This document shows, piece after piece, positions 14,194-35,714 of a stretch of 64,000 nt of DNA; the stretch's first letter is position 1; each line of letters opens with the position of its first letter. The position numbers and the translations under genes are program-made. Where the stretch lies: NCBI RefSeq assembly GCF_963378085.1, contig NZ_OY726395.1, positions 2,790,001-2,854,000 of the forward strand, read 5' to 3'. The DNA is from Mycolicibacterium sp. MU0050 (GTDB taxonomy: Bacteria; Actinomycetota; Actinomycetes; Mycobacteriales; Mycobacteriaceae). The notes under the pieces were generated by a model that was given only the letters and a program-made list of their open reading frames with translations, did not search any database and was not told the origin of the DNA.

Positions 14194-14233
14194 AGGGATG
14201 GAATGCGCCCCTGCGCAGCGGGAGGGAGGCCGG

Positions 14234-14821: not shown

Positions 14822-14841
14822 TCACAGCCCGAAGCCCGGGC

Positions 14842-14853: not shown

Positions 14854-14952
14854 AAGTAACCATTCGTGTGCAGTCGGTTGCCCGAGCCGGGCACTGCTGC
14901 GCGCGCGCTTCACATCGAATTCCGCCCGCGAGTAGCAGTCAGGAGACCTGCC

Positions 14953-18018: not shown

Positions 18019-18019
18019 G

Positions 18020-20424: not shown

Positions 20425-21731
20425 GGTGTCTCCTTCCCTGACGGTGCTACCTCATCGGGTGCCGGCACGAGGACCGGGCTCGGCGTGGGTTGCGGGCTCG
20501 ACGCCAGCTCCGGTGCAGCTTCGGCAGGCGGGCCGGGAGGTGGCCCGCCGGGTGCGGGCGCCGGCGGCGGTTCGCGATAGGGGTACCGCGGATCACCCGG
20601 ATTACCGGTGATCGCGTCGGGAAGCGTCATCTTCGGCTCCCCGCCCTGGCCGGTGCGGGGGTAGGGCACCGGCAACGCGGGGGTGGCGGGCTGCCCCGTC
20701 GGCGGATCCGTGCGCTCTGAGGGCAACAGCACGCTCGGGTCCAACCCGAGATCCGAGAACGCGGCGTCAACGAACGGCTGCACGAACTGCCCGGGCAGCA
20801 AGTTGGCGATATAGGCCGAGAAGAACGGCGCGGTGGACACCGATTCACCCAGCGACATCGCGTAGGAGTTGAGCCGCTTGATCGACTCCTGCACATCCTC
20901 TTTGCGGTTGTCGACGATTGCCAGCACGCCGTTGAGCTTCTCCAGCGCCGGCCGCAGGGTCTGCCGGTTCTCGGTGATGAAGCCGTCGATCTGCTCGGCC
21001 ACCGCCGCGATGCTTCCGGAGATGCGATCCAGCGCCTGGCTCTGCGCGCGCAGCGCCACCAGCAGCGCGTTGCTGTCGGCGATCAGGTCGACCACCTCGC
21101 CGGTGCGTTCCGCCAACACCGTGGTCGCCTTGTTGGCGTTGCGCAACAGGTTACGGAGTTGGTCGTCGCGCTTGTTGAGCACTTCGGCGAACCGCGACAC
21201 CCCCTCGACGGCGATCTTGAGGTCCGGCGGCGAATCCTGGAAGGTCTGCGCCAGCACCCGCAACGAATCTGAGAGCTGATCGGTGTCCAGTCCGCTGATC
21301 GCGGTGGTGAGGTCACCGAGCGCCTCGGGCAGGTCATACGGTGCGCGGGTGCGCTCCAACGGGATGGGGCCGTCGAGGGGCTCGTCGCCGCGCGGCGTGA
21401 TCTCGAGGACCTTGGCGCCGAGGATGGTCTGGGTTTTGATGGCTGCTTCGGTGCGGTCGCCGAGCTGAACGTCGGGGGCGACGCGGAATCGCACCCACAC
21501 CCGGGGCCCGTCCAGTTCGATCGCCGATACCGAGCCGATCTTGAGCCCGGACACCTGGACATCGGCACCAGCGGTGATGCCACCGGCCTCGCTGAAGTAG
21601 CCCGAGTAGTCATTGCCCTGGTTGAAGAACGGCAGCTTGTCGTACTGCAGCGCGCCGACGGCGAGCGCTGCGATCGCGATGATGCCAACGGTGCCGACCG
21701 CCAACGGGTTTCGTCTCAGCGATGGTTTCAT
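20421..21731 (-). CDS. mceC: Mce family protein MceC
   Basis: A 436-residue Mce subunit. The N-terminus MKPSLRRNPLAVG leads into a membrane helix (to about residue 30), then the MCE domain (YSGYFSEAGGITAGADVQVSGLKIGSV) and helices. The last ~75 residues are strongly proline-rich, probably extended through the cell wall. ATG 21731 is set by the 4-nt ATGA overlap with the mceB stop; the frame is open further upstream inside mceB without similarity. Confidence 0.94.
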   Translation of the reverse strand: MKPSLRRNPLAVGTVGIIAIAALAVGALQYDKLPFFNQGNDYSGYFSEAGGITAGADVQVSGLKIGSVSAIELDGPRVWVRFRVAPDVQLGDRTEAAIKTQTILGAKVLEITPRGDEPLDGPIPLERTRAPYDLPEALGDLTTAISGLDTDQLSDSLRVLAQTFQDSPPDLKIAVEGVSRFAEVLNKRDDQLRNLLRNANKATTVLAERTGEVVDLIADSNALLVALRAQSQALDRISGSIAAVAEQIDGFITENRQTLRPALEKLNGVLAIVDNRKEDVQESIKRLNSYAMSLGESVSTAPFFSAYIANLLPGQFVQPFVDAAFSDLGLDPSVLLPSERTDPPTGQPATPALPVPYPRTGQGGEPKMTLPDAITGNPGDPRYPYREPPPAPAPGGPPPGPPAEAAPELASSPQPTPSPVLVPAPDEVAPSGKETP

Positions 21732-22756
21732 TTCGGCGCACACCTCCCGGTGCTCTGGCCGGCGACCTTGACGAAGACCGGTTGGCCACCTTTGCCGTTC
21801 AATTTCAGGACGATGTCGCACAAATAGAAGCTGAAGAAGTCGCCATACAAGCCCTGACGCCCCAGCGCCTGGTACGCCTCGGGCAGCGTGTCCAGCAGCT
21901 CGTCGACGTACTCGTGGTCGGCAACAACCAACCCGGCGGTGCGGTCCGTCTCCGCGACCACCGTCTGCAACGGGGGCCGGGCCTGCCGGAGCAGATCCGC
22001 AATGGAGCCGGCCGCGGAGTCTGCGTGCCCGACCGCCGCACTGATGTCGGACTTGCGGGCTGCCAAGCCGTCGACGAGTTCGGCCAACGCCGCAACGCCT
22101 TGGTCGAATTTCTCGCTCTGATCGCCGAACGCCCCGAGCACCGAATGCAGGTTCGCGATGACCTGTCCGATGAGTTCGTCGCGGTCCGCCAGCGTGTTCG
22201 TCAGCGCGGCGGTGTGTGACAACAGGGAGTTGATCGTGGTGCCCTGCCCCTGGAACGCGTGGATCAGCTGCCCGCTCAGGGCGTTGACCTGATCGGGATC
22301 CAAGGCCCGGAACAGCGGGCGGAATCCCCCGACCAGCGCGTCGAGATCCAGGGCCGGTGCGGTCTGCGCCAGCGGGATCGTGGCACCCGGCGCCAACTGC
22401 CCGGTGCCGCCCGGCCCTTCTTCCAGGCCCAGATACCGTCCGCCGATCAGGTCGTCGTACCGGATGACCGCACGGCTGCCTTCGGTCAGTACCACCGCGT
22501 CGCTGGCCGTGAATTGCACGGTCAGCGTGGAATCCGGCTGCAAGGTAATGGCTTTCACCTTGCCCACCTCGACGCCGGCGACCCGCACGAAGTCACCGGC
22601 CGCCAGCCCGGTGACGTTGCTGAACTCGGCGGAATAGTGCTTTTCCTCCACGAAACGCAACTCGGCGAACACGGCGAACATGGCGAACAGCGCGATCAGG
22701 CAGATCGACAGGAACACGGCGAGACGCCAAACTATCTGGCGCATATCTACTCTCAT
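21728..22756 (-). CDS. mceB: Mce family protein MceB
   Basis: A 342-residue Mce subunit. A membrane helix lies near residues 10-30, the MCE domain (YSAEFSNVTGLAAGDFVRVAGVEVGKV) follows, then a coiled helical part. The C-terminus FYLCDIVLKLNGKGGQPVFVKV matches the MceB signature. ATG 22756 (MRVDMRQIVWRLA) is used; ATG 22744 four codons later, preceded by GAGAG, is an alternative. Sixteen nt separate it from mceA, the largest gap within the operon. Confidence 0.93.
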   Translation of the reverse strand: MRVDMRQIVWRLAVFLSICLIALFAMFAVFAELRFVEEKHYSAEFSNVTGLAAGDFVRVAGVEVGKVKAITLQPDSTLTVQFTASDAVVLTEGSRAVIRYDDLIGGRYLGLEEGPGGTGQLAPGATIPLAQTAPALDLDALVGGFRPLFRALDPDQVNALSGQLIHAFQGQGTTINSLLSHTAALTNTLADRDELIGQVIANLHSVLGAFGDQSEKFDQGVAALAELVDGLAARKSDISAAVGHADSAAGSIADLLRQARPPLQTVVAETDRTAGLVVADHEYVDELLDTLPEAYQALGRQGLYGDFFSFYLCDIVLKLNGKGGQPVFVKVAGQSTGRCAPK

Positions 22757-22772
22757 CGCAGCGACGATTCCT

Positions 22773-24170
22773 TCACTGGGGTGCCGGCGGGTTGAACGGT
22801 TCGCTCCCGGGCGGAGGCGGGCCCGGCTCCCGGGGCTGCCCGGGTGGCGGCGCCGGCGGCAGGCCCGGCCACAGCGGGGTGCCGTCGGGGGCGTACAGCT
22901 GTGCGCCGTAGGCCGGGGCGCCCGGGTAGGGAATGGGGCCCGGCGCGGGGGGCCCGTGGTAGCGGATGCTCGGCGGTTCGGGAACACCGCGCGTCGTCGG
23001 GAAGTAGTTGGCGTATCCGGGGATCCCGATCCCGGGATTGGGCCGGATGTCGAGCCCGGTACCCCAGCCGGTGTTGGTGACCAGCTGACGATGCGGGAAG
23101 TTGTTGTCGACGATGGGCAACGATCCGCAACCCGGTTGCCCGCCCGGACCGCCCTTGGCACCCACGATCGGGAGATGTTGCGGATAGCGGTAAGGATCGT
23201 CGCCGAGCAGCAGCGCGACGTCGGTGGAGATGGACTTTCCGTTGATCCCCCCGGTGACGTCGTAGCCACCGTTCTCCAGGAACCAGTGTCCGCCCACCAG
23301 CATGCAGGTCAGTTGGGGGTCGTACTTGTGCACCAGTCGGGTGGTGGGTTCGAGCACGTTGACCGCGTTGACCAGGTTGTCCTTGTTGGGGCCGACCAGT
23401 TCGGCACCGCTGCGCGACATTCCGGCCAGATTCACCAGCAGGTTGTCGAGCGCAGCGGCGTTGTCACTGATGGTCGTCGAGGTGGTACTCGACGCATCCA
23501 GCACACGGAGGATGTCCGCCGCCGCGGCGCTGTAGGTGTCGCTGAAGCCTTCGACCGCGCGCCAATCCTCGCGGATGGTCTCGCTGAGCGGATTGAGTTC
23601 CAGCAGCACGTTGTTGGCGGCGGTCGTCGCGCGCCCCAAGGTAGCTCCCTGCCCCCGCAGGCCTTCCGCCACCGCGGACAGCACGCCGTTGAGCTTGACC
23701 GGGTCGACTTGCTTGAGCACGTCGGTGAGGTTCTGGAACACCGTGTTGACCTCGGTGCTGACGTTCTGGGCCGGGATCACCGCACCAGCACCCAGCGGGT
23801 GGCCGGCCGGATCGTCCGGATACACCAGGTCGACGTACTTGGCACCGAAGGCGGTGGTCGCCTTGATCTGTGCGGTCACGTTGGCGGGGATGAATTCCGC
23901 CTGCCGAGGATCGATATCCAGTCTGAGCTCGACCGGTTGTGCGCCGCCCTCGACGGCGCTGACCGTGCCAATCTGGATCCCGGACATCTTCACCTTGGCG
24001 CCGGACTCGAGTACCAGACCCGAGCGGTCCGAGGTGACGGTGACCGACATCCGCGGGGTGAAGGAACGGGTGAACAGCGCCCAGGTCCCGACAATCATGC
24101 CGAGGATGACTGCGAAGAGGACCAAGGTCCACCACGCTGGGTGTAGTGCTCGATCATGTCGTGATTCCAT
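22773..24170 (-). CDS. mceA: Mce family protein MceA
   Basis: A 465-residue first Mce subunit. A membrane helix (LVLFAVILGMIVGTWALF, residues ~16-33) precedes the MCE domain (MSVTVTSDRSGLVLESGAKVKMSGIQIGTV). A long helical region carries STEVNTVFQNLTDVLKQVDP, and a conserved MceA block (DPQLTCMLVGG, then GLDIRPNPGIGI) follows. The final ~65 residues are extremely Pro/Gly-rich. ATG 24170 lies 3 nt after the yrbEB stop. This subunit usually defines substrate class in a Mce system, but which known mce lineage it belongs to cannot be decided by eye. Confidence 0.95.
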   Translation of the reverse strand: MESRHDRALHPAWWTLVLFAVILGMIVGTWALFTRSFTPRMSVTVTSDRSGLVLESGAKVKMSGIQIGTVSAVEGGAQPVELRLDIDPRQAEFIPANVTAQIKATTAFGAKYVDLVYPDDPAGHPLGAGAVIPAQNVSTEVNTVFQNLTDVLKQVDPVKLNGVLSAVAEGLRGQGATLGRATTAANNVLLELNPLSETIREDWRAVEGFSDTYSAAAADILRVLDASSTTSTTISDNAAALDNLLVNLAGMSRSGAELVGPNKDNLVNAVNVLEPTTRLVHKYDPQLTCMLVGGHWFLENGGYDVTGGINGKSISTDVALLLGDDPYRYPQHLPIVGAKGGPGGQPGCGSLPIVDNNFPHRQLVTNTGWGTGLDIRPNPGIGIPGYANYFPTTRGVPEPPSIRYHGPPAPGPIPYPGAPAYGAQLYAPDGTPLWPGLPPAPPPGQPREPGPPPPGSEPFNPPAPQ

Positions 24171-24173
24171 GGG

Positions 24174-25058
24174 CTACCCCGCGAGGTTGAAGTTGCCGGA
24201 TTCGCCGTAGATGGCCAGGGAGACAAGCAGTGTCACGAAAGCCGAGACCACCAGCGATGCGCGCACCGCCCGGCCCACGGCCTCCCCCACCCCGGCGGGA
24301 CCGCCGGAAGCGGTGAAGCCGTAGTAGGTGTGGACCAACATCACCACCACCGCGATGCTGATGGCCTGGATGAACGACCAGATCAGATCGACGGGGTTGA
24401 GGAAGGTGTTGAAATAGTGGTCGTAGACGCCGGTGGATTGACCGTAGAAGACCGTGGTGCCGACGCGGGCGGCGACGAAGGCCACCTGGACGGCGATGCA
24501 GTACAGCGGAATCACCACGAGCACACCGGCCAACACCCGGGTGGAGGCCAGATAGGCGATGGACCGGATCCCCATCACCTCAAGGGCGTCGATCTCCTCG
24601 TTGATGCGCATTGCGCCGAGTTGTGCGGTGGCACCGGCACCGACGGTGGCGGCCAACCCGATACCCGCCACCAGCGGTGAGGTGATCCGGACGTTGAGAA
24701 AGGCCGAAGTGAAGCCGGCCAGGGCCTCCACCCCGACGTCTGCCAACTGGTTATAGGCCTGCACGGCGATCCACGCACCGGCCGACAAGGTCAGGAACCC
24801 GACGATGACGAGCGTGCCGCCGATGATCGCCAGCGCCCCGATGCCGAGGCTCATCTGCGCGACCAGGCGCAGCAGTTCGACCTTGTAGTTGGTCAACGCA
24901 TCCCCGACACCCCGGATCGTGAGCCCGTAGAACTGCGTTTGCAACCCCAACCGGTTCCAGCCCTGCACCCAGCCGGACACCGTCCGACGAGCCCTGGGGA
25001 ACTGGGCGCTCGGCCCCGCTGCGGGCCCTGCGGTGGGGGTGGTCGCGGTGGACGTCAT
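24174..25058 (-). CDS. yrbEB: YrbE-type permease subunit B (MlaE family)
   Basis: A 294-residue integral membrane protein of the MlaE/YrbE permease family, half of the transmembrane channel under the Mce tunnel. Several hydrophobic helices are visible (for example ALAIIGGTLVIVGFLTLSAG and VLAGVLVVIPLYCIAVQVAFV). The MlaE signature lies in TVGAGATAQLGAMRINEEIDALEVMGI near residues 130-160. ATG 25058 is fixed by a 4-nt ATGA overlap with the yrbEA stop; the open frame upstream of it is inside yrbEA. Confidence 0.95.
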   Translation of the reverse strand: MTSTATTPTAGPAAGPSAQFPRARRTVSGWVQGWNRLGLQTQFYGLTIRGVGDALTNYKVELLRLVAQMSLGIGALAIIGGTLVIVGFLTLSAGAWIAVQAYNQLADVGVEALAGFTSAFLNVRITSPLVAGIGLAATVGAGATAQLGAMRINEEIDALEVMGIRSIAYLASTRVLAGVLVVIPLYCIAVQVAFVAARVGTTVFYGQSTGVYDHYFNTFLNPVDLIWSFIQAISIAVVVMLVHTYYGFTASGGPAGVGEAVGRAVRASLVVSAFVTLLVSLAIYGESGNFNLAG

Positions 25059-25822
25059 AGCGTCACCTTCACCGCGACGGCGGTCGCCACCACGTTGATG
25101 ACGAACAGCGACATGAAGGAGTACACCACCGTTTCGTTGACGGCGTTCCCGACGCCTGCCGGACCGCCGCCGACCGAGATGCCCTTGTAGCAGGCGATCA
25201 GTGCGGCGGCCAGACCGAAGATCGAGGCCTTGACCAGGCACACGATGACCTCCGGAAGCCCGATCAACAGCGTCATTCCGGCGACGAAGGCACCCGGAGT
25301 GACATTCTGGACGTACACCGAGAAGAGAAAGCCTCCGAAGATTCCCACGATGGTGACCACCGAGGCCAACAAGAACGAAACAAGGGTTGCAGCAAGGACT
25401 CTCGGAACCACCAATGCTTGTATCGGATCGATGCCGAGCACCCGCATCGCATCGAGTTCCTCCCGGATGGTGCGGGATCCGAGGTCTGCGCACATCGCGG
25501 TGGCGCCGGCGCCGGCGATCACCAGCACCGTCACGATCGGGCCGATCTGGGTGACCGCGCCGAGCGCCGCCCCGGTTCCCGAGAAGTCGGCGGCTCCGAT
25601 CTCGACGAACAAGATGTTGAGGGTAAAGACGGTCAACACCGTGAACGGCAGGGCGAGCATTATGGTCGGCAGAATGGAAACCCTTGCCACAAACCAGGTT
25701 TGAGCCAGAAACTCACGCCACGCGAACGGCGGCCTGAAGATCAACCGCAGCGTGTCGGCCGACATCAGGAAGAAGTCGCCGACGGCCCGGACCGGCCTGG
25801 CGGCTGCTTGCGCAACACTCAC
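25055..25822 (-). CDS. yrbEA: YrbE-type permease subunit A (MlaE family)
   Basis: A 255-residue membrane permease, first gene of the Mce importer operon. The MlaE-family loop GAGATAMCADLGSRTIREELDAMRVLGIDP is present, with five or so hydrophobic helices. GTG 25822 gives the usual YrbEA length; an in-frame GTG at 25888 would add 22 residues. A 24-bp palindrome lies about 100 nt upstream of GTG 25822, identical in its arms to that before the tetR gene at 35574. The operon is thus probably controlled by that TetR (inference). Confidence 0.92.
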   Translation of the reverse strand: MSVAQAAARPVRAVGDFFLMSADTLRLIFRPPFAWREFLAQTWFVARVSILPTIMLALPFTVLTVFTLNILFVEIGAADFSGTGAALGAVTQIGPIVTVLVIAGAGATAMCADLGSRTIREELDAMRVLGIDPIQALVVPRVLAATLVSFLLASVVTIVGIFGGFLFSVYVQNVTPGAFVAGMTLLIGLPEVIVCLVKASIFGLAAALIACYKGISVGGGPAGVGNAVNETVVYSFMSLFVINVVATAVAVKVTL

Positions 25823-25924
25823 AGCTGAACCACATCCCCTCCCAGCAGCCAGTATCGAATGTCGAGATTTCCGCGCTCCGCTGCACACCGCAGGTCGACC
25901 ACGTGCTTCCCGCCTTTCAGAGGC

Positions 25925-25948
25925 ACTTTACCGGCCAGCCGGTAAAGT
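25925..25948. promoter_or_regulatory. 24-bp palindromic operator upstream of the yrbE-mce operon
   Basis: Arms ACTTTACCGGC (25925-25935) and GCCGGTAAAGT (25938-25948) are exact reverse complements around a 2-bp spacer CA. The same two arms, with spacer CG, occur at 35593-35616 before the cluster-2 tetR. On the minus strand the downstream arm contains TAAAGT, a plausible -10 hexamer, so binding would block transcription of yrbEA. The most likely ligand is the TetR encoded at 34960-35574 (inference). Confidence 0.75.
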
Positions 25949-26070
25949 AGATCGAACGTAAGCTGTGTCACATCGCATGTCAAGGGCCGCTTTCCCGGTT
26001 CGGAAAATCCACCCGCTTCGAACAAGAGCCCGCCACTCGACCGCCACATGCGCTCGCAATTACTTAACCA

Positions 26071-26082
26071 GTTGGTAAGGAT
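26071..26082 (+). promoter_or_regulatory. Candidate operator motif, copy 4 (GTTGGTAAGGAT)
   Basis: GTTGGTAAGGAT shares TGGTAAGG with the sites before the cluster-1 thiolase and SDR. It is flanked on the left by TTAACCA, giving an imperfect dyad (ACCA, two bases, TGGT). It lies about 250 nt upstream of yrbEA in a stretch without genes. A link to the TetR at 14234 would put the mce operon under a second regulator (inference). Confidence 0.38.
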
Positions 26083-26353
26083 AAATGCGGACAGTAGCGA
26101 CCGAATGATCCACTGTCAAGGATTGGTCAACCCAGCCCCGCGGCCGTCATGGCGACCCACAGCGCATGCACGCACCCGCGGCCCGGCCAGCGGCCTATTG
26201 CGTTAAACCACGCCATGCGGCCGTAACAGCATGAAGCGCCACGGCTTTCACCCGCCGGCCACCGGCGGGCACAGGTGGGCTGCGCGGCGGCGCCCAGTCG
26301 AGCCACCGGGCGCCCGAGGACCACCGTCGCCACCGCGGCGCCATTCCTGACCA

Positions 26354-26365
26354 ATCGGTATCGTT
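26354..26365 (+). promoter_or_regulatory. Weak match to the cluster-1 motif (ATCGGTATCGTT)
   Basis: ATCGGTATCGTT lies in the same gene-free region. Its extended form (CCAATCGGTA..ACTGTA) resembles the reverse-orientation site before the TetR gene at 14234 once one indel is allowed. Weak on its own. Confidence 0.22.
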
Positions 26366-26412
26366 ACTGTACCGCCGGTTGGTTGATCCCGGGCGCTGTT
26401 CGCGCAGTTCTG

Positions 26413-27669
26413 CTAAGCGCCCGGACCTTCCAGAATCGTCACCGCGCACACCGCGTTGTCGTTGCCGATCACGCCGCCGCCGTTCTCGGCCAACCCGAAT
26501 CGAGCGTCGCCGACCGCGTTGCCGCCGGCTTCCCCGCGCAGCTGGATCGAGATCTCGTTGATCATCATCAAACCGGTGGCACCGATCGGATGCCCACGCG
26601 AGACCAAGCCGCCGGACGCATTCACCGGTAGCTCACCGCCGATGGCGGTAGCTCCGGAGGCGGTGAACTCCCCGCCTTTACCGCGTTCGCAGAACCCGAG
26701 ATCTTCGAGGATATGGATCTCGGCGAACGAGCTCGCATCGTGCAGCTCGACCAGGTCGATGTCCGCGGGCGTCAGCCCGGCGGTCCGGAAGGCCCGGCGC
26801 CCGGCGATCACCGGCGCTCGATCGTCCTCCCACGTCGTGTCGAACACCCCGCAGGCGACCTCGCTGGCACGCACGCGGACGGCCCGGTCCCGCACCTCGG
26901 GCGGGCAGCTGTCGAGGTAGGACTGCGAGCAGATCAGGGCCGCCGCCGCGCCGTCTCCGATCGGGGCGCACATCGCCCGGGTCAGCGGATCGCTGACCAT
27001 CCGGTCCTCGAGCACCTGCTGGACCGTCAACGGAAACTGGTACTGGGCACGCGGATTGTGCACCGAGTTGGAATGGTTCTTGGCCGCGGCGATGGCGAAC
27101 TGTTCGGCGGTGCTGCCGTAGGCCCGCATGTGGGTGTGTGCCCACATGCCGTAGAGGTCCATCGCCAGACCTCGATCCGGGGCGGTTTCGAATTTCATGC
27201 CGTTGGCCGCTGCGGTGCGCTGGTAGAGGTCGCGCCACGACTGGGGATCCAACCAATCAAGGGCACCTTCCATGCCACGCAGGGCGGCCCTCGGGTTGTC
27301 CGGGTCGACCATCTTCTCCACGCCGATGGCCAGCGCCACCTCGCTGTGTCCGGACTGCACCTCGCGCAGTGCGTTGTTGAAGGCCTGAGACCCCGCAGCG
27401 CAACCGCCCTCGACGTTGGTGATCGGTGTGCCGCGCGGGAACAGGCCCTCGTTGACCAGCGGGGTGAAGCACAACTGCCCCTTGAGATAGGGCTGGCCCT
27501 GGTTCTCCATCAGCATGTTGGAGAACCACGCCGCGCCGATCACGTCGGTGTTCTCCAGTCGCGCATCGGCGAGGACCCCCAGGTAGGCCTCGCGGGTCAG
27601 GTCCTTGGGGCCCTTGTCGGGAAACTTGCCGACGTTGGTGGCATAAACCCCGAGTATGTAGGCGTTCAT
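26413..27669 (-). CDS. Thiolase-superfamily protein (SCP-x/lipid-transfer type)
   Basis: A 418-residue thiolase-fold protein. Cys90 in VEGGCAAGSQAF fits the acyl-carrying nucleophile. ELHDASSFAE and SRGHPIGATG give the His-containing loops, and the C-terminal NDNAVCAVTIL retains a cysteine that the cluster-1 relative lacks. It is the last gene of the minus-strand cluster-2 operon, 4 nt after the hydratase. Likely role is CoA-dependent cleavage (or the reverse) of a 3-ketoacyl-CoA at the end of the pathway. The cleaved unit is unknown. Confidence 0.88.
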   Translation of the reverse strand: MNAYILGVYATNVGKFPDKGPKDLTREAYLGVLADARLENTDVIGAAWFSNMLMENQGQPYLKGQLCFTPLVNEGLFPRGTPITNVEGGCAAGSQAFNNALREVQSGHSEVALAIGVEKMVDPDNPRAALRGMEGALDWLDPQSWRDLYQRTAAANGMKFETAPDRGLAMDLYGMWAHTHMRAYGSTAEQFAIAAAKNHSNSVHNPRAQYQFPLTVQQVLEDRMVSDPLTRAMCAPIGDGAAAALICSQSYLDSCPPEVRDRAVRVRASEVACGVFDTTWEDDRAPVIAGRRAFRTAGLTPADIDLVELHDASSFAEIHILEDLGFCERGKGGEFTASGATAIGGELPVNASGGLVSRGHPIGATGLMMINEISIQLRGEAGGNAVGDARFGLAENGGGVIGNDNAVCAVTILEGPGA

Positions 27670-27673
27670 CTCG

Positions 27674-28459
27674 CTATCGTCCTTCGAAAACAGGTACCCG
27701 CTTCTCGGTGAAAGCGGTCAGTCCCTCGTGGAAATCCTTGCTGTTCATATGGTTCCGCAGCAACAGCATCTCGTGGCGCAGGCCCGAATCCTCGTCGTGG
27801 TCCCATGCTGCGTTGGCAACCTCCTTCATCGCCTGCAGCACCAGCGGGCTCTTGTCGGCGATCTTGGTGCAGTACTGCTCGACGGTGGCCCGCAACTGGT
27901 CATCGGGCACCACCTCGTGCACCATGCCCCAGTCGCGCATCGTCGCCGCCGAGACCGGTTCGCCGCTGAAGAGCAACGCTTTTGCGCGTTGCGTGCCGAT
28001 CCGTCGAGGCAACACGGCGGCGCCGCCACCTGCCGGAAGCAGCCCATAGATGGCGTGCCCGTCGGCGAAGGTGGCGCTCTCCGCGGCGAAGAGCACATCG
28101 CAGAACAACAGCAACTCGAATCCGCCGGCCACCGCCGGTCCGTTGACGGCGGCGATCACCGGCTTGGGGCAGTTGCGCAGCGCGGTGAAGGCGGGCACGC
28201 TGCTGGCCACGCCGTCCGGTCCGTCGTTGCCTTCGCCCTGCAGTTCGCCGAGCACGAACTTGAGGTCACCCCCGGCGCAGAAGGCGCGCCCGGCCCCCGT
28301 GATCGCGATGACCCGGACCTCCGGGTCCGCCGTCGCCGCCTCCAGCGCCTCACACAGCGCGTTGAGCAACTCGGTGTTGAGCGCATTGAGCACGTTCGGG
28401 CGGTTGAAGCACAGCCACTGCACCTTGCCCTGGCGGTAGGTTTCCAAAACTGTGGTCAT
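27674..28459 (-). CDS. Enoyl-CoA hydratase/isomerase family protein
   Basis: A 261-residue crotonase-fold protein. FCAGGDLKF forms the oxyanion hole and VAGGFELLLFCD holds the first active-site Glu. The second Glu of classical hydratases is not seen; the region reads GHAIYGLLPAGGGA, as in the cluster-1 paralogue at 12587-13396. It may therefore be an isomerase, a hydrolase or a C-C bond enzyme rather than a plain hydratase. It lies between the SDR (15-nt gap) and the thiolase (4-nt gap) in cluster 2. Confidence 0.9.
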   Translation of the reverse strand: MTTVLETYRQGKVQWLCFNRPNVLNALNTELLNALCEALEAATADPEVRVIAITGAGRAFCAGGDLKFVLGELQGEGNDGPDGVASSVPAFTALRNCPKPVIAAVNGPAVAGGFELLLFCDVLFAAESATFADGHAIYGLLPAGGGAAVLPRRIGTQRAKALLFSGEPVSAATMRDWGMVHEVVPDDQLRATVEQYCTKIADKSPLVLQAMKEVANAAWDHDEDSGLRHEMLLLRNHMNSKDFHEGLTAFTEKRVPVFEGR

Positions 28460-28474
28460 GACGTTGATCAGCTC

Positions 28475-29242
28475 CTAGTGACGGGCGCGCAGACCGGCAT
28501 CCAAACTGATGCAGGTGGCGTTGAAGTAGACGTTGGTGATGATGTGTTCGATCAGGCGACCGATCTCGGCCGGATCCCCCATTCGCTTGGGGTACAGCAC
28601 CGACTCCTGCAAGGAGGTCAACACGGCCTCCGAGACCTCGCCGGCCATCCCGGTCTCGAACACTCCGGGAACCACCGATACGCAACGGATCCCGTCCTTG
28701 GCAAGGTCGCGGGCGATCGGCAGGGACATCCCGACCACCCCGGCCTTACTCGCCGCATAGGCCACCGTGCCCCGAGTGCCATCCCAGGCCGCACCGGAGG
28801 CGATGTTCACCAGCACCCCGCGCTCGGTGGTCTCCGGATCAGGCTCGTTGGTGACCATCTGGGCGGCCGCGAGACGCACCACGTTGAACACGCCGGTGAG
28901 GTTGACGTCGATCACGCGTTGCCACACCTCGAGACTGTGCGGCACTCCCTTGGACACCGTTTTCATCATCGAGGGGATGCCGGCGCAGTTGACCGCGGCG
29001 TGCACGGTGCCGAACTGCTCGGTGGCCACCCGTACCGCCGTTTCGACCTGTACGGCGTCGCCGACATCGGTGCGCACCGCGATCGCTCCCGCGCCGAGTT
29101 CCGCGGCGGCTCTTGCCACCCGTTCCTCGTTCACGTCGAGCAGCACCACATTGGCGCCCGCCTTGTGCAGCGTCTGCGCGGTCGCCAGCCCCATGCCGGA
29201 TGCGGCGCCGGTCACGAGGGCGCACCGGCCGTTCAATTTCAC
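28475..29242 (-). CDS. SDR family dehydrogenase, HSD10-like
   Basis: A 255-residue SDR. GAASGMG dinucleotide motif lies near residue 13, the NNAG element reads NCAG, catalytic Ser is in NIASGAA and Tyr-Lys in YAASKAG. It is a paralogue of the cluster-1 SDR (13400-14161) and like it resembles type II 3-hydroxyacyl-CoA dehydrogenases. GTG 29242 overlaps the acyl-CoA ligase stop by 4 nt, indicating translational coupling. Expected step: oxidation of a 3-hydroxyacyl-CoA intermediate. Confidence 0.9.
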   Translation of the reverse strand: MKLNGRCALVTGAASGMGLATAQTLHKAGANVVLLDVNEERVARAAAELGAGAIAVRTDVGDAVQVETAVRVATEQFGTVHAAVNCAGIPSMMKTVSKGVPHSLEVWQRVIDVNLTGVFNVVRLAAAQMVTNEPDPETTERGVLVNIASGAAWDGTRGTVAYAASKAGVVGMSLPIARDLAKDGIRCVSVVPGVFETGMAGEVSEAVLTSLQESVLYPKRMGDPAEIGRLIEHIITNVYFNATCISLDAGLRARH

Positions 29243-30843
29243 TGTTGTGCTCCTTGTTTGGTGAGTTGCGGCAGTTCCACCGCGTCAGCTAGACCCTGCT
29301 GTTTGAGCTTGAACTTCTGCACCTTGGCGGTCTCGGTCTTGGGGAGTTGGTCGACAAAGCGGATGTAGCGCGGAAACGCGAACCGCGGCAGGCCTTCCGC
29401 GCAGACCGCGGCGATGTCGGCGAGGCTGGGTGCTCGGCCCGGATCGGTCACCACCGCGACGGCGATCTCGTCCTCGCCGAACTCGGAAGGCACCGGGTAG
29501 GCGCCGCACTCGACCACGCCGTCAATGGTGTTGAGCACGTCTTCCACGGTGCGCGGCGAGATGTTCTCCCCGCGACGACGGATCATTTCCTTGACCCGGT
29601 CCACGTAGTACACGTAGCCGTCCTCGTCGATCCGCGCCGCATCACCGGTGTGGAACCAGAAGTTGCGCATCACCTTCAGCGACTCCTCTGGCTGGTTCCA
29701 GTAGCCGTTGGACATCGACCATGGCTCGTCACACCTGATGCAGAGCTCACCCACCTCGCCGGGCGGAACCTCACGGTCGTACTCGTCGACGACCCGGACG
29801 CGGTACGGCGCGACCGCCCGACCACAGGAGCCATGGGGCACCACAGCATCGACGGAGTTCAGGATCGGGATACTGATCTCGGTGGCCCCGTACATCTCGA
29901 ATATCGGAATATCGAACCGCCGCGCGAAGGCGTCGACCAGCGGCCGTGGCGCCGGGACGATCAACGCCCGGGTGATGTCGTTGGTGCGGTCCTGGCCCGA
30001 CTCCGGCTGGGCCAGCAGGAAATGCGCCATCGACACCACCATGTGCGCCACCGTCGCTCGGTGCTCGCGGGCCTGTTCCCAGAACTTGCTCGCGCTGAAC
30101 TTTCGGACCAGCAGCAGCCGCGCGCCCGAGATCAGGCAGGCGCCCACATTCATGTACTTGCCACCGCCGTGAAACAGCGGCAGTACGGCGATCAAGGTGT
30201 CGTCCGACGTCAGCTGCAGGGCCCGCACGGTGCGCTCTCCGATCCGCACCGTCGCGCGGTGCGGCAGCACCGCCCCCTTGGGTAGGCCGGTGGTCCCGGA
30301 GGTGTACATGATCGAGGCGGTATCCGGCCCGGCGGCGGCGGTTTTCACCGCCACGCCCGGGTTGGCGATGATCGCGTCCAGTGTGCCCGGATCGTGCTCC
30401 GGGGCGTCGACGTGCGGCGCCACCCCGATCAGCAGGCCGCAGGTGCCGCCGGGCAGGGCTTCCTCGATTCTCTCGCAATGGTCCGCGTCGACGATGGCCG
30501 CCTTGGGCGCGGCGTCCTGCAGGACGTGCCGCAAACTGGCGCCCACCAGGCCCGGGTTGACCGGAACCTCGACTGCGCCGATCTTGCTGAGCCCCAGCAT
30601 CACGTACACGGCGCGGACATCGTTGGGCACCAACGTCATCACCCGATCGCCGGCCCCCACCCCGCCACGCTGAAGTGCCGCGGCGATCGCCGAGGCCCGC
30701 TGATCCAGCTCGCGGTAGGTGACTTCGACACCGTCGTCCTGCACGATGCACACCCGGTCGGGGTCGCGGGCCGCCCAGCGTTCGACCACCGCGCTCAGCA
30801 CCGAATCGAGCAAGTCGAGCTCGCCGATAGGCACCGCGCCCAC
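29239..30843 (-). CDS. Acyl-CoA synthetase (AMP-forming)
   Basis: A 534-residue ANL-superfamily ligase. The P-loop is YTSGTTGLPKGAVLPH near residue 180, PLFHGGGKY follows, EMYGATE lies near 320, the hinge region reads DRVKEMIRRRGENISPRTVE, and the catalytic Lys is in KTETAKVQKFKLK. The RRRGENIS hinge resembles crotonobetaine/carnitine-CoA-ligase-type enzymes more than long-chain FadD proteins. GTG 30843 overlaps the last base of the zinc-ribbon gene stop. Its place directly after a carboxylase-like gene set suggests it activates the acid made by those proteins; this is inference. Confidence 0.9.
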   Translation of the reverse strand: MGAVPIGELDLLDSVLSAVVERWAARDPDRVCIVQDDGVEVTYRELDQRASAIAAALQRGGVGAGDRVMTLVPNDVRAVYVMLGLSKIGAVEVPVNPGLVGASLRHVLQDAAPKAAIVDADHCERIEEALPGGTCGLLIGVAPHVDAPEHDPGTLDAIIANPGVAVKTAAAGPDTASIMYTSGTTGLPKGAVLPHRATVRIGERTVRALQLTSDDTLIAVLPLFHGGGKYMNVGACLISGARLLLVRKFSASKFWEQAREHRATVAHMVVSMAHFLLAQPESGQDRTNDITRALIVPAPRPLVDAFARRFDIPIFEMYGATEISIPILNSVDAVVPHGSCGRAVAPYRVRVVDEYDREVPPGEVGELCIRCDEPWSMSNGYWNQPEESLKVMRNFWFHTGDAARIDEDGYVYYVDRVKEMIRRRGENISPRTVEDVLNTIDGVVECGAYPVPSEFGEDEIAVAVVTDPGRAPSLADIAAVCAEGLPRFAFPRYIRFVDQLPKTETAKVQKFKLKQQGLADAVELPQLTKQGAQQ

Positions 30844-31052
30844 TACAGCTCCCCCGACAACACCGGGGACTCGATACGCTGCGCATCAGCGGTGTGCAGG
30901 CAGGCCCGGCACTTGACGACGCGCAGCCAGCCCCGGTAGTCGACCACCCGGTAGCGGGCCAACCGCCGAGCACCACAGCGCTCGCAACCGTCGTCCACCT
31001 CCTCGACCGCCTCATTGATGAACAACTCTGTGGGCTGCGGGTAAATCTTCAT
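30843..31052 (-). CDS. Small zinc-ribbon protein, possible accessory subunit of the carboxylase-like pair
   Basis: A 69-residue protein with two CxxC knuckles (Cys23/Cys26 and Cys48/Cys51) separated by a beta-rich stretch, a minimal zinc ribbon. ATG 31052 has GGAGGAG just upstream. It lies 27 nt downstream of the HyuB-like gene and touches the ligase gene, so it belongs to the operon. Acetone and acetophenone carboxylases, built on HyuA/HyuB-like subunits, carry a small extra subunit, and this protein could play that part. I cannot assign it to a named family, and a role with the ligase or thiolase is equally possible. Confidence 0.72.
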   Translation of the reverse strand: MKIYPQPTELFINEAVEEVDDGCERCGARRLARYRVVDYRGWLRVVKCRACLHTADAQRIESPVLSGEL

Positions 31053-31079
31053 GGTCTACTCCTCCAAAGGCTGCGTTGG

Positions 31080-32906
31080 TCAGGGAGCGGCGGTCACGAT
31101 GTCGTTGCGGACATCACGTGCCACTGCGTTCGGATCGCGGCGGGCCGGGTCGCCGCAGCCGCCCGCGCCGGGGGTCTGATGCACCACCACATCGCGGGCA
31201 CCGATCACCACGCCGGCTTGTTTGCTCGACCGGAACTGCGTCTCGCCGGGCACTTCCTCGGGCACCAAGCGGCCGGCTGCATCCACGATGCCGGCCAGCA
31301 CCTCCGGTTCGCCCAGATCCGCGCCGGACGCCCAGGCGTCCAGAGCGTTGCGATACACCTTGATGTGCCCGGTGGTCCCGTTATCTCCGCCCATCGCACC
31401 CCGCGGCCCGATCCGGCACTGGTCGAGCTGGAACGAGCTTTCGCAATCGGCCAGCGGGACCAACACGGATCGGGTTGCCGGCCCGCCGCGATACTGCCCG
31501 GATCCCGCGGTGTCCGCGACGAATTCGCGCTCGAGCAGCAACACCGGGAAAGATTCCTCTTCGAGTTCGATCGACGTCACCACGCAGTTGCCGCCCTCCT
31601 GGAACGTATAACAACTGCCGTCGCCCTGCGCGTGGCCGCCGAAAGGCCCCTGGAACAGGTTCATGGAGATGAACGGGGCCGGGACATCGCTGCGAGTGTC
31701 GACCCCGGCGAAGCTCATGAACAGCACGTCGTCATAGTTCTCCGCCACCGCCATCGCCGGATCGGCCTGCGAGAGAGCCCTTTTCACCAGGTTTATCGCC
31801 TTGGCGATGAACATGGTGTGGCCGGCGTTGGTCGCCATCGGGGGCAGCGCGTGCAAGCAGCTTCCCGGTGGCAACACGACGTGCACGGGGCGGTAGGCGC
31901 CGGCGTTGGGGCTGATCGAATCCGGTAGCGCGACCTGCAGTCCCAGGTGGGCACCGGACACCCCGTCGGACCAGGTGCAGGCGAAACCGCCCCATTCGTT
32001 GCGTGACGACCCGGAGTAGTCGACCTCCACCTCACCGCCGTGCTTACGCACGGTGCAGCGGATGAGCATCGGGTCACCGTCCATGTCGTTGTCCATGTAG
32101 TCCTCGGCGGACCATTCTCCGTCCGGGATCGCACTCAGGGCCGCGCGCATCGCCCGCTCGGTATGGTCCAGCGAGTACTGCACAGCGCCCGCGTAGGCCT
32201 CGCGCCCGTAACGGTTTACGTAGCGCAGCACCATCTCCGCACCCAACACCAACGCCGAATGGATCACCTGCAGGTCATTGAGACTGATGTCGGGGATCCG
32301 GGTTTGGCCGGTGAACAGTTCGACGGTCTCACGGACGAGTTCGCCCTCGCGGTAGAGGTGCCGCGGCGAGATCCGGATGCCCTCGGCGTACATGTCCCGC
32401 TGCAGGCCGGGGCCGAACCCGGTGGGAATGGGCCCGCCGATGTCGAGCCAGTGGGTGATCGCTGCGGCGAAGCCGACCAGTACTTGTTCGTCGTCGAAGA
32501 TCGGCATCAGGGTGCCGACGTCGTTGATGTGACTGCCGCCGCGGTAGGGCTCGTTGAAGATGATGACGTCACCGGGCTTGAAGTTCTCCACGCCCCAGTG
32601 CTCGATGGCCATCCTGGCGTAGAACTGGTTGATCACGTAGTGGCCGGGCGCGGCGGTGCCCATGGCGATCGCGTCGAAATCCAAGTCGCGATCGGCATCC
32701 CGGGGCGCGAGCAACCCGATGCCGAAGTCGTTGACCTCGCTGAGCAGTGGGCTCAGTGCCGCGGTATTGATCTTGATCTGCATCTGCAGACCGATGTGTT
32801 CCAGCGCGTGCCGGATCACCTCGGCGGTGGTGAGGTCGACGCCGTAACGGTCTTCGACCTCTTTGGCGCCGAGCACGGAAACCGGTTGGGGTGCCACAGT
32901 TGTCAC
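31080..32906 (-). CDS. Hydantoinase B / acetone carboxylase alpha-type subunit
   Basis: A 608-residue HyuB-family protein. Typical segments are TTAEVIRHALEHIGLQMQIKI, the metal/active-site-like region PGDVIIFNEPYRGGSHINDVG near residue 120, HINDV..PIFDDEQVLVGFAAAITHWLDIGG, and the C-terminal TPGAGGCGDP. The family covers N-methylhydantoinase B, 5-oxoprolinase B parts and ketone carboxylase subunits. GTG 32906 overlaps the HyuA-like stop (GTGA). A reading frame continues upstream inside the neighbour without similarity. Because acyl-CoA chemistry follows, carboxylation of a ketone is more attractive than hydantoin cleavage, but that is inference. Confidence 0.88.
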   Translation of the reverse strand: MTTVAPQPVSVLGAKEVEDRYGVDLTTAEVIRHALEHIGLQMQIKINTAALSPLLSEVNDFGIGLLAPRDADRDLDFDAIAMGTAAPGHYVINQFYARMAIEHWGVENFKPGDVIIFNEPYRGGSHINDVGTLMPIFDDEQVLVGFAAAITHWLDIGGPIPTGFGPGLQRDMYAEGIRISPRHLYREGELVRETVELFTGQTRIPDISLNDLQVIHSALVLGAEMVLRYVNRYGREAYAGAVQYSLDHTERAMRAALSAIPDGEWSAEDYMDNDMDGDPMLIRCTVRKHGGEVEVDYSGSSRNEWGGFACTWSDGVSGAHLGLQVALPDSISPNAGAYRPVHVVLPPGSCLHALPPMATNAGHTMFIAKAINLVKRALSQADPAMAVAENYDDVLFMSFAGVDTRSDVPAPFISMNLFQGPFGGHAQGDGSCYTFQEGGNCVVTSIELEEESFPVLLLEREFVADTAGSGQYRGGPATRSVLVPLADCESSFQLDQCRIGPRGAMGGDNGTTGHIKVYRNALDAWASGADLGEPEVLAGIVDAAGRLVPEEVPGETQFRSSKQAGVVIGARDVVVHQTPGAGGCGDPARRDPNAVARDVRNDIVTAAP

Positions 32907-34963
32907 AGGTTCTTCTCCTCGATCTCGATGATCACGTCGCCGAATTCGTTCACCGTCGCGACATCGCCCGCGACGAGCACGCCGGTGTACGTCTGGGCCT
33001 CGATGACCGCCGGGCCGGCCACCACCTGGTTGGGTGCGAAGTCGTCGGCGTTGTAGACCGGCACGTCCCGGTTGAGTTCGCCCATGAGGGTGATGTCGCG
33101 GCGGCGCCTGGGTTGCGCCGGTTCGCTGTTGGTCAGCCGGGGCGGGAACAGTCGGCGCTGATCGGTCGACACCGCGCGGGTGCGCAGGGTCTGGACGTAG
33201 ATTGGTGCGGGCAGGCTGTAACCGAACTGGCGTTGATGCGCGGCGGCGAAGGCTTCGGTCAGGTGCGTCAGCGGCTCTGGGTGCGACGGGTCGATGACCG
33301 CCGCGAGCTCCCATCGCTGGCCCAGGTAGGTGGCGTCCAGCCAGGCTTCGACGACGACATCCCGGTTGCCGCGACCGCGGAGCCTCCCGACCAGGTGCTC
33401 CAGGCTCTGCCGGGCCCGGGCGAACACGTCGGTCGCGACGTCCTCGGTGACGGTCGCCATCACCGGGGTGACCTCTTCCTCGAACGCTTGAGCAGTGAGC
33501 AGACCGAACGCCGAGAACACCCCTGACAGGGCCGGGATGACCACCCGCGGCATCTGCAGCGAGCGTGCGATCTGACTGGCCACCAGCGGCCCGGCTGCGC
33601 CGTAACTCACCAGCCCGAACTCGCGCGGATCGGCGCCGCGATAAACCGTGAGGCGCCGAACCGCCTCCGCCATGTTGTGGATGGCGACTTCGGTCGAGGT
33701 GCGCGCAACCTCGACTGCGGTCATGTCCAGGGCCGCGGCCAACGGCGCGAATGCGGCCTCCGCAGCCGCGACGTCCGGGTAGATCTCGCCGCCCAGGGGC
33801 ACCTCGGCATCCAGCACACCGAGCAGCAGGAAGGCATCGGTGACGGTCGGCTGGGTGCCGCCGTGGCCGTAGCAAGCCGGGCCGGGGTCGCTGCCCGCGC
33901 TTTCCGGACCGACCTTGAGCCCGCCGCCCTCGTCGATCGCGATCAGGCTGCCGCCGCCCGCGCCGATGCTGTGGATCTCCACCACCGGCAGGCTGACCAG
34001 CAGATCGTGCTCGATCTCGAGCTCGCGTTTGACCGACGCGCGACCGTCCACCACCACGGCGACCTCGGTGCTGGTGCCACCCATGTCGAAGCCCACCAGG
34101 TTCGGCATCTCGAGTCGCTCGGCGTAGGCCTGCACGCCCATGACCCCGCCGACCGGTCCGCTGTTGAGGGTCGCGACGGGCCGGGACGTGACCTGCTCGG
34201 CGGTGATCAGACCGCCGTCGTTGGTCATGAACGTCAAGGGGGCGTCCAGGCCGGCCTCCCGCAGCCGACCCTCCACCCGCGTCGTGTAGGACTCCATCAA
34301 CGGCTGGACGTAGGCGTTGAGCACGCAGGTGGAGAACCGGTTGTACTCACGCGGGAACGGCGCCACCTCCGCCGAGGTGCTCACGCTGATACCGGGAAAC
34401 CGGTCGCGGATCAGTTCGGCGGCGCGTTGCTCGTGTTCGGGATGCTTGTAGGCGTGCAGGAAACACACCGCGATGCCCTGGCATCCGTCGGCCACCAGGC
34501 GCTCCACCTCCTGCAGCAGACGTTCTTCGTCGAGGGTCATCAACACTCCGCCGTCGGCCATCAGCCGCTCGCTGACGGTGCGGCGGCGGTATCGCTCGAC
34601 GATGGGCCGCAGCTCGTGGGGTCGACGCCAGCGCGGGTCCACCATGGCCTCGAAGGGGCGCCAACCGCGGGCCATATCGAGAAGGTCACGGAACCCGTGG
34701 GTGGTCACCATGCCGATGTCGGCGCCGCGGCGGGTCAGGATCGCGTTGAGCGCCACCGTGGTGCCGTGCACGATCTGGTCGATGGGAGTGTCGCCGGGTT
34801 CGGCCTTCTCGATGGTGCGGAGCAGCCCGTTGGCGAGGTCGTCGTAGGTCGTCAAGGACTTGGTGCCGATGCGTACCTGTTCGCCTTCGGCCAGCACCAG
34901 GTCGGTGAAAGTGCCCCCGGTGTCGATGCCGATGCGCAGTGCCGTATTCGAGGTCATGCTCAC
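32903..34963 (-). CDS. Hydantoinase A / acetone carboxylase beta-type ATPase subunit
   Basis: A 686-residue HyuA-family protein, the ATP-using partner of the HyuB-like subunit. The actin-fold ATPase motifs are GIDTGGTFTD (residues 12-21), HGTTVALNAIL, MTNDGGL near 255, GFDMGGTSTEV near 290 and IGAGGGSLI near 330. ATP is expected to activate the substrate carbonyl or bicarbonate by phosphorylation. GTG 34963 overlaps the tetR stop by 4 nt; ATG 34957 two codons later is an alternative. A second HyuA/HyuB pair lies at 61180-64000. The sequence does not tell which ketone, lactam or hydantoin is used. Confidence 0.9.
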   Translation of the reverse strand: MSMTSNTALRIGIDTGGTFTDLVLAEGEQVRIGTKSLTTYDDLANGLLRTIEKAEPGDTPIDQIVHGTTVALNAILTRRGADIGMVTTHGFRDLLDMARGWRPFEAMVDPRWRRPHELRPIVERYRRRTVSERLMADGGVLMTLDEERLLQEVERLVADGCQGIAVCFLHAYKHPEHEQRAAELIRDRFPGISVSTSAEVAPFPREYNRFSTCVLNAYVQPLMESYTTRVEGRLREAGLDAPLTFMTNDGGLITAEQVTSRPVATLNSGPVGGVMGVQAYAERLEMPNLVGFDMGGTSTEVAVVVDGRASVKRELEIEHDLLVSLPVVEIHSIGAGGGSLIAIDEGGGLKVGPESAGSDPGPACYGHGGTQPTVTDAFLLLGVLDAEVPLGGEIYPDVAAAEAAFAPLAAALDMTAVEVARTSTEVAIHNMAEAVRRLTVYRGADPREFGLVSYGAAGPLVASQIARSLQMPRVVIPALSGVFSAFGLLTAQAFEEEVTPVMATVTEDVATDVFARARQSLEHLVGRLRGRGNRDVVVEAWLDATYLGQRWELAAVIDPSHPEPLTHLTEAFAAAHQRQFGYSLPAPIYVQTLRTRAVSTDQRRLFPPRLTNSEPAQPRRRRDITLMGELNRDVPVYNADDFAPNQVVAGPAVIEAQTYTGVLVAGDVATVNEFGDVIIEIEEKNL

Positions 34964-35574
34964 ACTCCCTTGTCAGTAGTCGGGGACGTCATGCCGTAGA
35001 GGAGCCGGTCTGCGAACGACTCGGCGATCTTCTCGATCTTCAACGGCCCCTCGGGGTCGAACCAGAACGCGGTGAAGTTACATGCGCCGAGGATGGCGAG
35101 GGCGTCCAGATGTGCGTCGCCAGAACGGAATTCACCCGTGGCCATGCCCGCCTTGATGACCTGTTCGAAGTCGGTCCGAAACTGGTTGCGGCCCTTGCCG
35201 ATGGTGACCGCCATCTCGCCGCTGAGATGGCCGTACTCGCGCAGGAACACCGTGCCTTCGGACTGATAGATGCCGGCGGTCTGCACGGTCTCGATGATCA
35301 GTTCCCGCAGTTTCTGGGTCGGTGTGCTGTCCGACTCGACGATCCGCAGGGCGGAGTCGCGCAGCTTGTGGGCAAACCGCTCGTGCAGGGCGTACAGCAG
35401 CACTTCCTTGCTGGCCACGTGGTAGTAGAGGCCGGCCTTGGTCATGCCGGCCTCTTCGGCGATCTGACGCAGCGATGCGTTCGCGAAACCTTCGCGTTCC
35501 ATCACGCGCGCGGCCGCGACGAGGATACGTTCGGGTATCTGCGGCGTTTCGGCGCTGCCGTCGGTGTCGGTCAT
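34960..35574 (-). CDS. TetR family transcriptional regulator (cluster 2)
   Basis: A 204-residue TetR repressor with helix-turn-helix at about residues 34-53 (LRQIAEEAGMTKAGLYYHVASK). It is the first gene of the cluster-2 operon, overlapping the HyuA-like gene by 4 nt, so it controls its own transcript if it binds the palindrome 19 nt upstream of its ATG. The same palindrome lies before the mce operon 9.6 kb away, making this protein a candidate joint regulator of import and catabolism. The ligand is probably a pathway intermediate such as a CoA ester, as in related mycobacterial TetR proteins (inference). Confidence 0.9.
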   Translation of the reverse strand: MTDTDGSAETPQIPERILVAAARVMEREGFANASLRQIAEEAGMTKAGLYYHVASKEVLLYALHERFAHKLRDSALRIVESDSTPTQKLRELIIETVQTAGIYQSEGTVFLREYGHLSGEMAVTIGKGRNQFRTDFEQVIKAGMATGEFRSGDAHLDALAILGACNFTAFWFDPEGPLKIEKIAESFADRLLYGMTSPTTDKGV

Positions 35575-35592
35575 CGTTGTCCCCTTCCGGTT

Positions 35593-35616
35593 ACTTTACC
35601 GGCCGGCCGGTAAAGT
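35593..35616. promoter_or_regulatory. 24-bp perfect palindromic operator before the cluster-2 tetR
   Basis: Arms ACTTTACCGGC (35593-35603) and GCCGGTAAAGT (35606-35616) flank CG; the whole 24 bp is self-complementary. On the minus strand the proximal arm supplies TAAAGT as a likely -10 element, leaving a leader of under 20 nt before ATG 35574. Identical arms occur at 25925-25948 before the mce operon. A TetR-type autoregulatory operator is the natural reading. Confidence 0.82.
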
Positions 35617-35714
35617 GGTGAGGGGAACGTTAACCAGCGGCGGTACCCCTGTCAAGGGCCAGGCGCCGCGATGCGGCCAACGAAGCCGACAAATGTGTTT
35701 CAGGCGTTTGGAAT

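What the first reader, a model, noticed from the sequence alone, without database searches (positions are those of the whole stretch)
25925..35616. One palindromic operator shared by a carboxylase/beta-oxidation operon and an mce importer operon
Sequence: an 11-bp inverted repeat (arms ACTTTACCGGC and GCCGGTAAAGT, spacer 2 bp) occurs at 35593-35616, 19 nt before a tetR start, and again with identical arms at 25925-25948, about 100 nt before yrbEA. Known: TetR proteins usually bind such palindromes, often their own promoter. Inference: the TetR at 34960 co-controls its own eight-gene catabolic operon and a complete Mce lipid importer, making a self-contained import-and-breakdown unit. The TAAAGT in each arm fits a -10 hexamer that binding would block.
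Basis: partly seen in the sequence, partly recalled or inferred. Interest (0 to 1): 0.8.

Follow-up and report, generated by a model that had tools for sequence, protein, structure and literature searches.

The report
Repressor pairing importer with breakdown operon
In a mycobacterium, one DNA palindrome sits near the start of both a lipid-importer operon and a breakdown operon that carries its own repressor gene, and two related species keep both copies, so one repressor very probably switches uptake and breakdown of the same unknown compound on together.

Summary
Confirmed and strengthened. ACTTTACCGGC-N2-GCCGGTAAAGT lies at 25925-25948 (mce side) and 35593-35616 (tetR side); these are its only copies up to 3 mismatches in the 5.22-Mb genome. 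The TetR (3 of 396 genus genomes) and hyuA (3 of 326) are rare. The two other species that have them keep both palindromes upstream of the same operons: 24/24 and 23/24 columns invariant, against 40/118 and 61/259 around them. In one, other genes put the operons 16.4 kb apart, yet the mce operator remains. 27 other yrbEA places lack it. "Carboxylase" is uncertain: HyuA/HyuB score higher against hydantoinase-type enzymes than ketone carboxylases. The TetR model resembles KstR2, PfmR, DarR and AibR; an acyl-CoA inducer is likely. The logic is that of KstR with mce4: a new member of a known kind, substrate unknown. Nothing was tested at the bench.

The parts
34960..35574 (-). tetR, first gene of the catabolic operon; TetR_N + TetR_C_24
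   Evidence: Pfam; AlphaFold2 model mean pLDDT 89.2; nearest solved folds KstR2, PfmR, DarR, AibR
35593..35616 (.). operator 1: perfect 24-bp palindrome, 18 nt before the tetR ATG
   Evidence: 24 of 24 columns invariant in three species
35627..35655 (-). predicted tetR-operon promoter TTGACA-17-TAACGT; its -10 ends 10 nt before operator 1
   Evidence: also in two relatives
32903..34963 (-). hyuA (Hydantoinase_A): ATP-dependent hydantoinase/oxoprolinase/carboxylase-type subunit
31080..32906 (-). hyuB (Hydantoinase_B)
30843..31052 (-). 69-aa protein with four invariant Cys (two CxxC pairs), probable zinc ribbon; possible third subunit of HyuAB
   Evidence: 15 homologs; alignment; no NCBIfam or Pfam match at E up to 0.001; no PDB sequence match better than E 0.67; no fold match at E up to 0.001
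29239..30843 (-). acyl-CoA ligase (AMP-binding)
28475..29242 (-). short-chain dehydrogenase/reductase
27674..28459 (-). enoyl-CoA hydratase/isomerase
26413..27669 (-). thiolase of the lipid-transfer-protein type
26091..26119 (-). second, distal mce promoter TTGACA-17-TACTGT
   Evidence: also in G261 and G279
26064..26079 (.). second, different imperfect palindrome (CTTACCAACTGGTTAA on the minus strand), 11 nt after the distal -10; possible site of another regulator
   Evidence: the three orthologous sites apart, 5 other places in three genomes against 21 for the reversed control
25955..25983 (-). proximal mce promoter TTGACA-17-TACGTT; its -10 ends 6 nt before operator 2
   Evidence: 18-nt invariant run GTGACACAGCTTACGTTC
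25925..25948 (.). operator 2 upstream of the mce operon
   Evidence: 23 of 24 columns invariant
25819..25902 (-). 27-codon leader ORF (GTG start, purine-rich stretch before it); its stop overlaps the yrbEA start as GTGA
   Evidence: same length and overlap in three species; no clear third-position bias, so coding is not shown
25055..25822 (-). yrbEA (MlaE permease), likely GTG start
   Evidence: (scanned with a longer N-terminus)
24174..25058 (-). yrbEB (MlaE permease)
   Evidence: Pfam MlaE; 88 and 90% identity in the relatives
16582..24170 (-). mceA to mceF (24170-22773, 22756-21728, 21731-20421, 20424-19147, 19150-18020, 18018-16582)
   Evidence: TIGR00996 for mceA; MlaD domain for mceB-F; 85-94% identity in the relatives

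Best explanation
A local TetR repressor binds a 24-bp palindrome lying at about +1 to +28 of two similar consensus promoters: that of its own eight-gene catabolic operon and that of the adjacent mce importer operon. Bound repressor blocks RNA polymerase just after it loads. A pathway intermediate, most likely an acyl-CoA made by the operon's own CoA ligase, releases it, so import and breakdown of one lipid-like substrate start together. Shown by sequence: the two sites, their exclusivity, promoter-like sequences, and conservation in three species. Inferred: binding, repression, start sites, effector and substrate.
Confidence: 0.86

Rival explanations
1. The TetR controls only its own operon; the mce palindrome is a relic of duplication or is read by another TetR.
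For: No binding data. Other mycobacterial TetR-like ORFs sit beside related palindromes of the form ACTTTACC-N8-GGTAAAGT.
Against: The mce copy is as conserved as the tetR copy in three species, also where the operons lie apart. No close paralog of this TetR in the own genome at E up to 1e-30 (12 of 118 first-look candidates scored).
Confidence: 0.08
2. The palindromes act as RNA hairpins (attenuator or RNA-protein site) at the 5' end of both transcripts, not as DNA operators.
For: They lie in the predicted 5' untranslated region of both transcripts; folded as RNA each gives a 10-bp stem with a 4-nt loop, -16.0 and -19.1 kcal/mol for the stretches folded.
Against: Any such palindrome folds this way, and the energies are not far from shuffles (z -1.92 and -1.10). 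No U run follows. The arms hardly vary among the three species, so covariation cannot be tested. The first operon gene is a TetR, whose family binds such DNA.
Confidence: 0.05
3. One reading: the TAAAGT in the arm is the -10 box itself and binding covers the core promoter.
For: TAAAGT fits the loose TANNNT form.
Against: Best -35 partner 3 of 6 letters and not conserved; in G261 mce the hexamer is TAAAGC. A TTGACA-17/18-TANNNT promoter lies upstream in all six regions.
Confidence: 0.05

Closest known systems
KstR regulon with mce4 (Kendall et al. 2007, PMC1995591; abstract and passages seen)
   Same: An autoregulated TetR repressor with a palindromic site controls both lipid catabolic genes and an mce importer operon.
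   Different: KstR motif TnnAACnnGTTnnA, 16 and 31 intergenic instances and 74-83 predicted genes over the genome; here a longer palindrome with only two copies and two adjacent operons. The kstR site partly overlaps the -10; here it lies after the predicted start.
Mce3R with mce3 (PMC11667970; abstract and passages seen)
   Same: A TetR-type repressor next to an mce operon.
   Different: Mce3R is a double TetR that binds asymmetric 25-bp sites without a palindrome; here a single TetR and a perfect palindrome.
BkaR (PMC3920632; abstract and passages seen)
   Same: An autoregulated mycobacterial TetR with a 24-bp palindromic motif controlling a nearby metabolic operon.
   Different: Other core (GTTA(N)T(N4)A(N)TAAC); its regulon as described in the passages seen has no mce operon.
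KstR2, PfmR, AibR (TetR structures)
   Same: Three of the top four entries by Z, the other being DarR; AibR was solved with isovaleryl-CoA (titles).
   Different: 25-28% identity; other operators and pathways (recalled).
HyuAB group: N-methylhydantoinase, caprolactamase/oxoprolinase, acetophenone and acetone carboxylase
   Same: HyuA and HyuB match members of all of these.
   Different: Below the curated cut-off of every NCBIfam model matched; a 69-aa CxxC protein is added; substrate unknown.

Membership tests
TetR family repressor | TetR_N helix-turn-helix plus helical ligand domain | tested here: met
   TetR_N 49.2 bits and TetR_C_24 98.4 bits, both above cut-off; model
TetR family repressor | binds a palindromic operator and is released by a ligand | not testable with these tools
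   palindrome present and conserved; binding not tested
KstR regulon | KstR motif TnnAACnnGTTnnA upstream of the genes | tested here: not met
   no exact copy of the motif anywhere in the 64-kb window (motif). Its inner core AACnnGTT occurs once between thiolase and yrbEA, inside the second palindrome; G261 and G279 do not share it there
Mce importer operon | two YrbE permeases followed by six Mce proteins | tested here: met
   MlaE for yrbEA and yrbEB, MCE family TIGR00996 for mceA, MlaD for mceB-F, all above cut-off; yrbEA scores 136 bits on TIGR00056, below its cut-off of 212.2
Mce importer operon | MceG-type ATPase available | not tested
   not looked for in the genome
Acetone/acetophenone carboxylase | HyuA-like and HyuB-like subunits closest to the carboxylases, with an extra small zinc subunit (recalled) | tested here: inconclusive
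   PDB scores: HyuA 402 bits to N-methylhydantoinase, 326 to 5-oxoprolinase 6yra, 248.4 to acetophenone carboxylase gamma; HyuB 145.1 bits to hydantoinase 6yra, 143.9 to N-methylhydantoinase, 50.2 to acetone carboxylase alpha; the small CxxC protein has no significant match
Caprolactamase CapAB | NCBIfam equivalog cut-off of 1000 bits for each subunit | tested here: not met
   435.5 and 170.2 bits

The most novel reading that the evidence does not exclude
This Mce system is a dedicated importer for a non-steroid substrate, for example a lipid-like ketone or cyclic amide, whose first catabolic step is an ATP-dependent HyuAB reaction with a third zinc-ribbon subunit. The mce operon then has two layers of control: the shared TetR operator at the proximal promoter, a second regulator at the distal promoter, and a coupled 27-codon leader ORF.
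Probability: 0.3. Interest if true: 0.7.

Novelty: new member of a known kind. Interest (0 to 1): 0.5.

Why it matters
Cargo is known for few Mce importers (recalled: fatty acids for Mce1, cholesterol for Mce4). A private two-site regulon ties an Mce importer of unknown cargo to one short catabolic operon, so identifying the repressor's ligand or the HyuAB substrate would name the importer's cargo. It is also a compact, two-operator model for joint control of lipid uptake and breakdown.

Tried and rejected
Rejected: TAAAGT as -10. Rejected: a wider regulon, since other loose matches are at control level. In one search, 12 of 248 genomes had a match up to 3 mismatches: the own genome (exact) and 11 others (one three-mismatch place each), against 7 genomes with a match to the reversed control. 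I looked at ORFs of six of those 11 loci (L003, L004, L007, L009, L011, L012); four carry another TetR-like ORF at the site (judged by eye, no family scan).

Led nowhere: the genome-contig scan with the TetR gave only distant relatives (27-43% identity); the plasmid search only matches under 60%; family and relatives draws gave no further ortholog (1 of 251, and 1 of 118, each the centre genome itself). The model of the 69-aa protein has mean pLDDT 73.6 and no PDB match at E up to 0.001. Literature: one search found 46 papers holding both half strings; none of the 10 listed is about such an operator by title; two searches found none; others (36 papers, 15 listed; 4; 5) served for orientation. 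No terminator-like site was found in 25700-26500, so read-through from the catabolic operon into mce is not excluded. The tool's own promoter scan of that stretch found none: it asks for at least 4 of 6 letters of TATAAT, which TACGTT does not reach.

Coding test of the leader ORF: differences by codon position 10/11/11, 7/9/11 and 7/10/13 in the three pairs, so no clear coding signal.

Corrected on checking: the yrbEB and mceB queries were out of frame, so their identities there (52-67%) mean nothing; in-frame values are 88-90%. One RNA-folding run was added for the hairpin rival.

Full report
Observation. The element ACTTTACCGGC-N2-GCCGGTAAAGT occurs exactly at 25925-25948 and 35593-35616; 100 dinucleotide shuffles of the window give none. 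In the whole own genome (5,224,726 bases) these are the only places with up to 3 mismatches. A second-order model of the window predicts about 1.4e-8 exact copies per genome. The tetR copy is a perfect 24-bp palindrome. The window holds two other perfect 11-bp-arm repeats (at 722 and 51455) of other sequence, so the shared arms, not the mere presence of a palindrome, are the signal.

Genes. On the minus strand, tetR (35574-34960) starts a tightly packed operon: hyuA, hyuB, a 69-aa CxxC protein, an acyl-CoA ligase, an SDR, an enoyl-CoA hydratase and a thiolase, ending at 26413 (gaps -4, -4, 27, -1, -4, 15, 4 nt). The next genes on the same strand are yrbEA, yrbEB and mceA-F, ending at 16582; all eight match MlaE, MCE or MlaD models. 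Convergent to mceF are a CoA ligase (14866-16500), an SDR (13400-14161) and an ECH (12389-13396) on the plus strand; no operator copy lies with them.

Promoters. Only three TTGACA-N16-19-TANNNT sites exist in the 64 kb on either strand (mean 0.15 in shuffles, 0 of 100 with three): 35655-35627 before tetR, and 25983-25955 and 26119-26091 before mce. In the tetR case 10 nt, in the proximal mce case 6 nt, separate the -10 from the palindrome. The same order holds in G261 and G279 with 10-11 and 6-7 nt and a spacer of 17 or, once, 18 nt. If transcription starts about 7 nt after the -10 (general knowledge, not mapped here), the palindrome covers about +5 to +28 of the tetR transcript and +1 to +24 of the mce transcript. 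The tool's stricter scan found no promoter in 25700-26500.

Comparison. The TetR is rare: at E up to 1e-30, 1 of 248 and 3 of 396 genus genomes, 1 of 251 family genomes and 1 of 118 relatives of G261, the single hits being the centre genomes. These draws overlap and are samples of larger groups. hyuA at E up to 1e-200: 3 of 326, the same three. G261's TetR equals P0003 over the first 200 residues; a source name for P0003 is Mycolicibacterium chitae. Both have the catabolic operon at 79-92% identity and the mce operon at 85-96%. Both palindromes are present in all three. Column counts, gap columns included: tetR side 24 of 24 invariant against 40 of 118 outside; mce side 23 of 24 against 61 of 259. 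In G279 16.4 kb lie between thiolase and yrbEA, with two HyuA, one HyuB, and CoA-ligase, SDR, thiolase and ECH relatives among the genes there; the operator stayed with mce. Control: of 30 yrbEA places in 27 of 396 genomes at E up to 1e-120, the three orthologs carry the palindrome and both promoters; the other 27 (73-80% identity) have neither the strings TTTACCGG/CCGGTAAA nor such a promoter upstream (only 127 nt could be read in one; some have other, shorter imperfect palindromes). Five longest-contig lengths in the protein searches are shared by a TetR relative and a relative of the 69-aa protein (10997, 32937, 7054, 1545503, 5453374), which suggests that regulator and operon travel together; three named holders of the 69-aa protein (M. 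elephantis, SMC-4, XJ2546) are not among the names in the TetR list.

Pathway. One consistent chain is alcohol to ketone (SDR), carboxylation (HyuAB plus zinc subunit), CoA activation (ligase) and thiolysis (thiolase), as recalled for ethylbenzene/acetophenone. But HyuA and HyuB score better against N-methylhydantoinase, a 5-oxoprolinase/hydantoinase pair (6yra) and the caprolactamase models, so a ring-opening amide hydrolysis is equally open. I do not commit to a substrate.

Mechanism. Most likely the repressor dimer sits just after the start of both transcripts and stops RNA polymerase; inducer release opens uptake and breakdown together. Steps shown: sites, promoter-like sequences, exclusivity, conservation. 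Steps inferred: binding, repression, ligand, cargo. The elements could also form a 10-bp hairpin in RNA (z -1.92 and -1.10 against shuffles), which is a rival I rate at 0.05. A distal mce promoter with a different palindrome, and a 27-codon ORF coupled to yrbEA, suggest a further layer that I could not resolve.

Known systems. KstR is the precedent: a TetR that represses itself, catabolic genes and mce4 (PMC1995591, abstract and passages). Its motif has no exact copy in the window. Mce3R binds asymmetric sites (PMC11667970, abstract and passages). A survey of mycobacterial TetRs (PMC4482099, passages) puts 408 of 663 in divergent and 146 in likely co-transcribed arrangement; the latter is the case here. 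Full-text searches for mce operon with hydantoinase and mycobacter and for mce, TetR, ketone, carboxylase and Mycolicibacterium found no paper in the open library; most subscription papers are not covered. I therefore rate it a new member of a known kind, clean and testable, with modest surprise.

Noticed in passing
window 26064-26119: A second distal mce promoter (TTGACA-17-TACTGT) is followed 11 nt later by a different imperfect palindrome; G261 has TTTACCAACTAGTAAA, G279 a weaker form. Same layout as the main operators, other spacing between half-sites; its regulator is unknown. In the window's species it holds the KstR inner core AACnnGTT, not shared by the other two.
   Followed up: partly
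window 25819-25902: A 27-codon ORF after operator 2 ends in a GTGA overlap with yrbEA; same length and overlap in three species, but no clear codon-position bias.
   Followed up: partly
window 30843-31052: A 69-aa protein with four invariant cysteines, 'hypothetical' or 'uncharacterized' wherever a source names it, with no significant Pfam or PDB match; perhaps a third HyuAB subunit.
   Followed up: partly
G279 C1:3032610-3048378 (parts of L030 and L028): Genes between the catabolic and mce operons include two HyuA-type, one HyuB-type, and CoA-ligase, SDR, thiolase and ECH relatives: a second catabolic set of similar make-up.
   Followed up: partly
L003, L007, L009 at 1501-1524: Related palindromes ACTTTACC-N8-GGTAAAGT beside another TetR-like ORF, with small-transporter-like ORFs nearby (by eye), in three other genus genomes; half-sites of this type may recur among TetR operators.
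   Followed up: partly
window 12389-16500: A plus-strand ECH-SDR-CoA ligase set convergent to mceF, kept beside mceF in G261 and, for the part of the CoA ligase read, in G279; it has no copy of the operator.
   Followed up: partly
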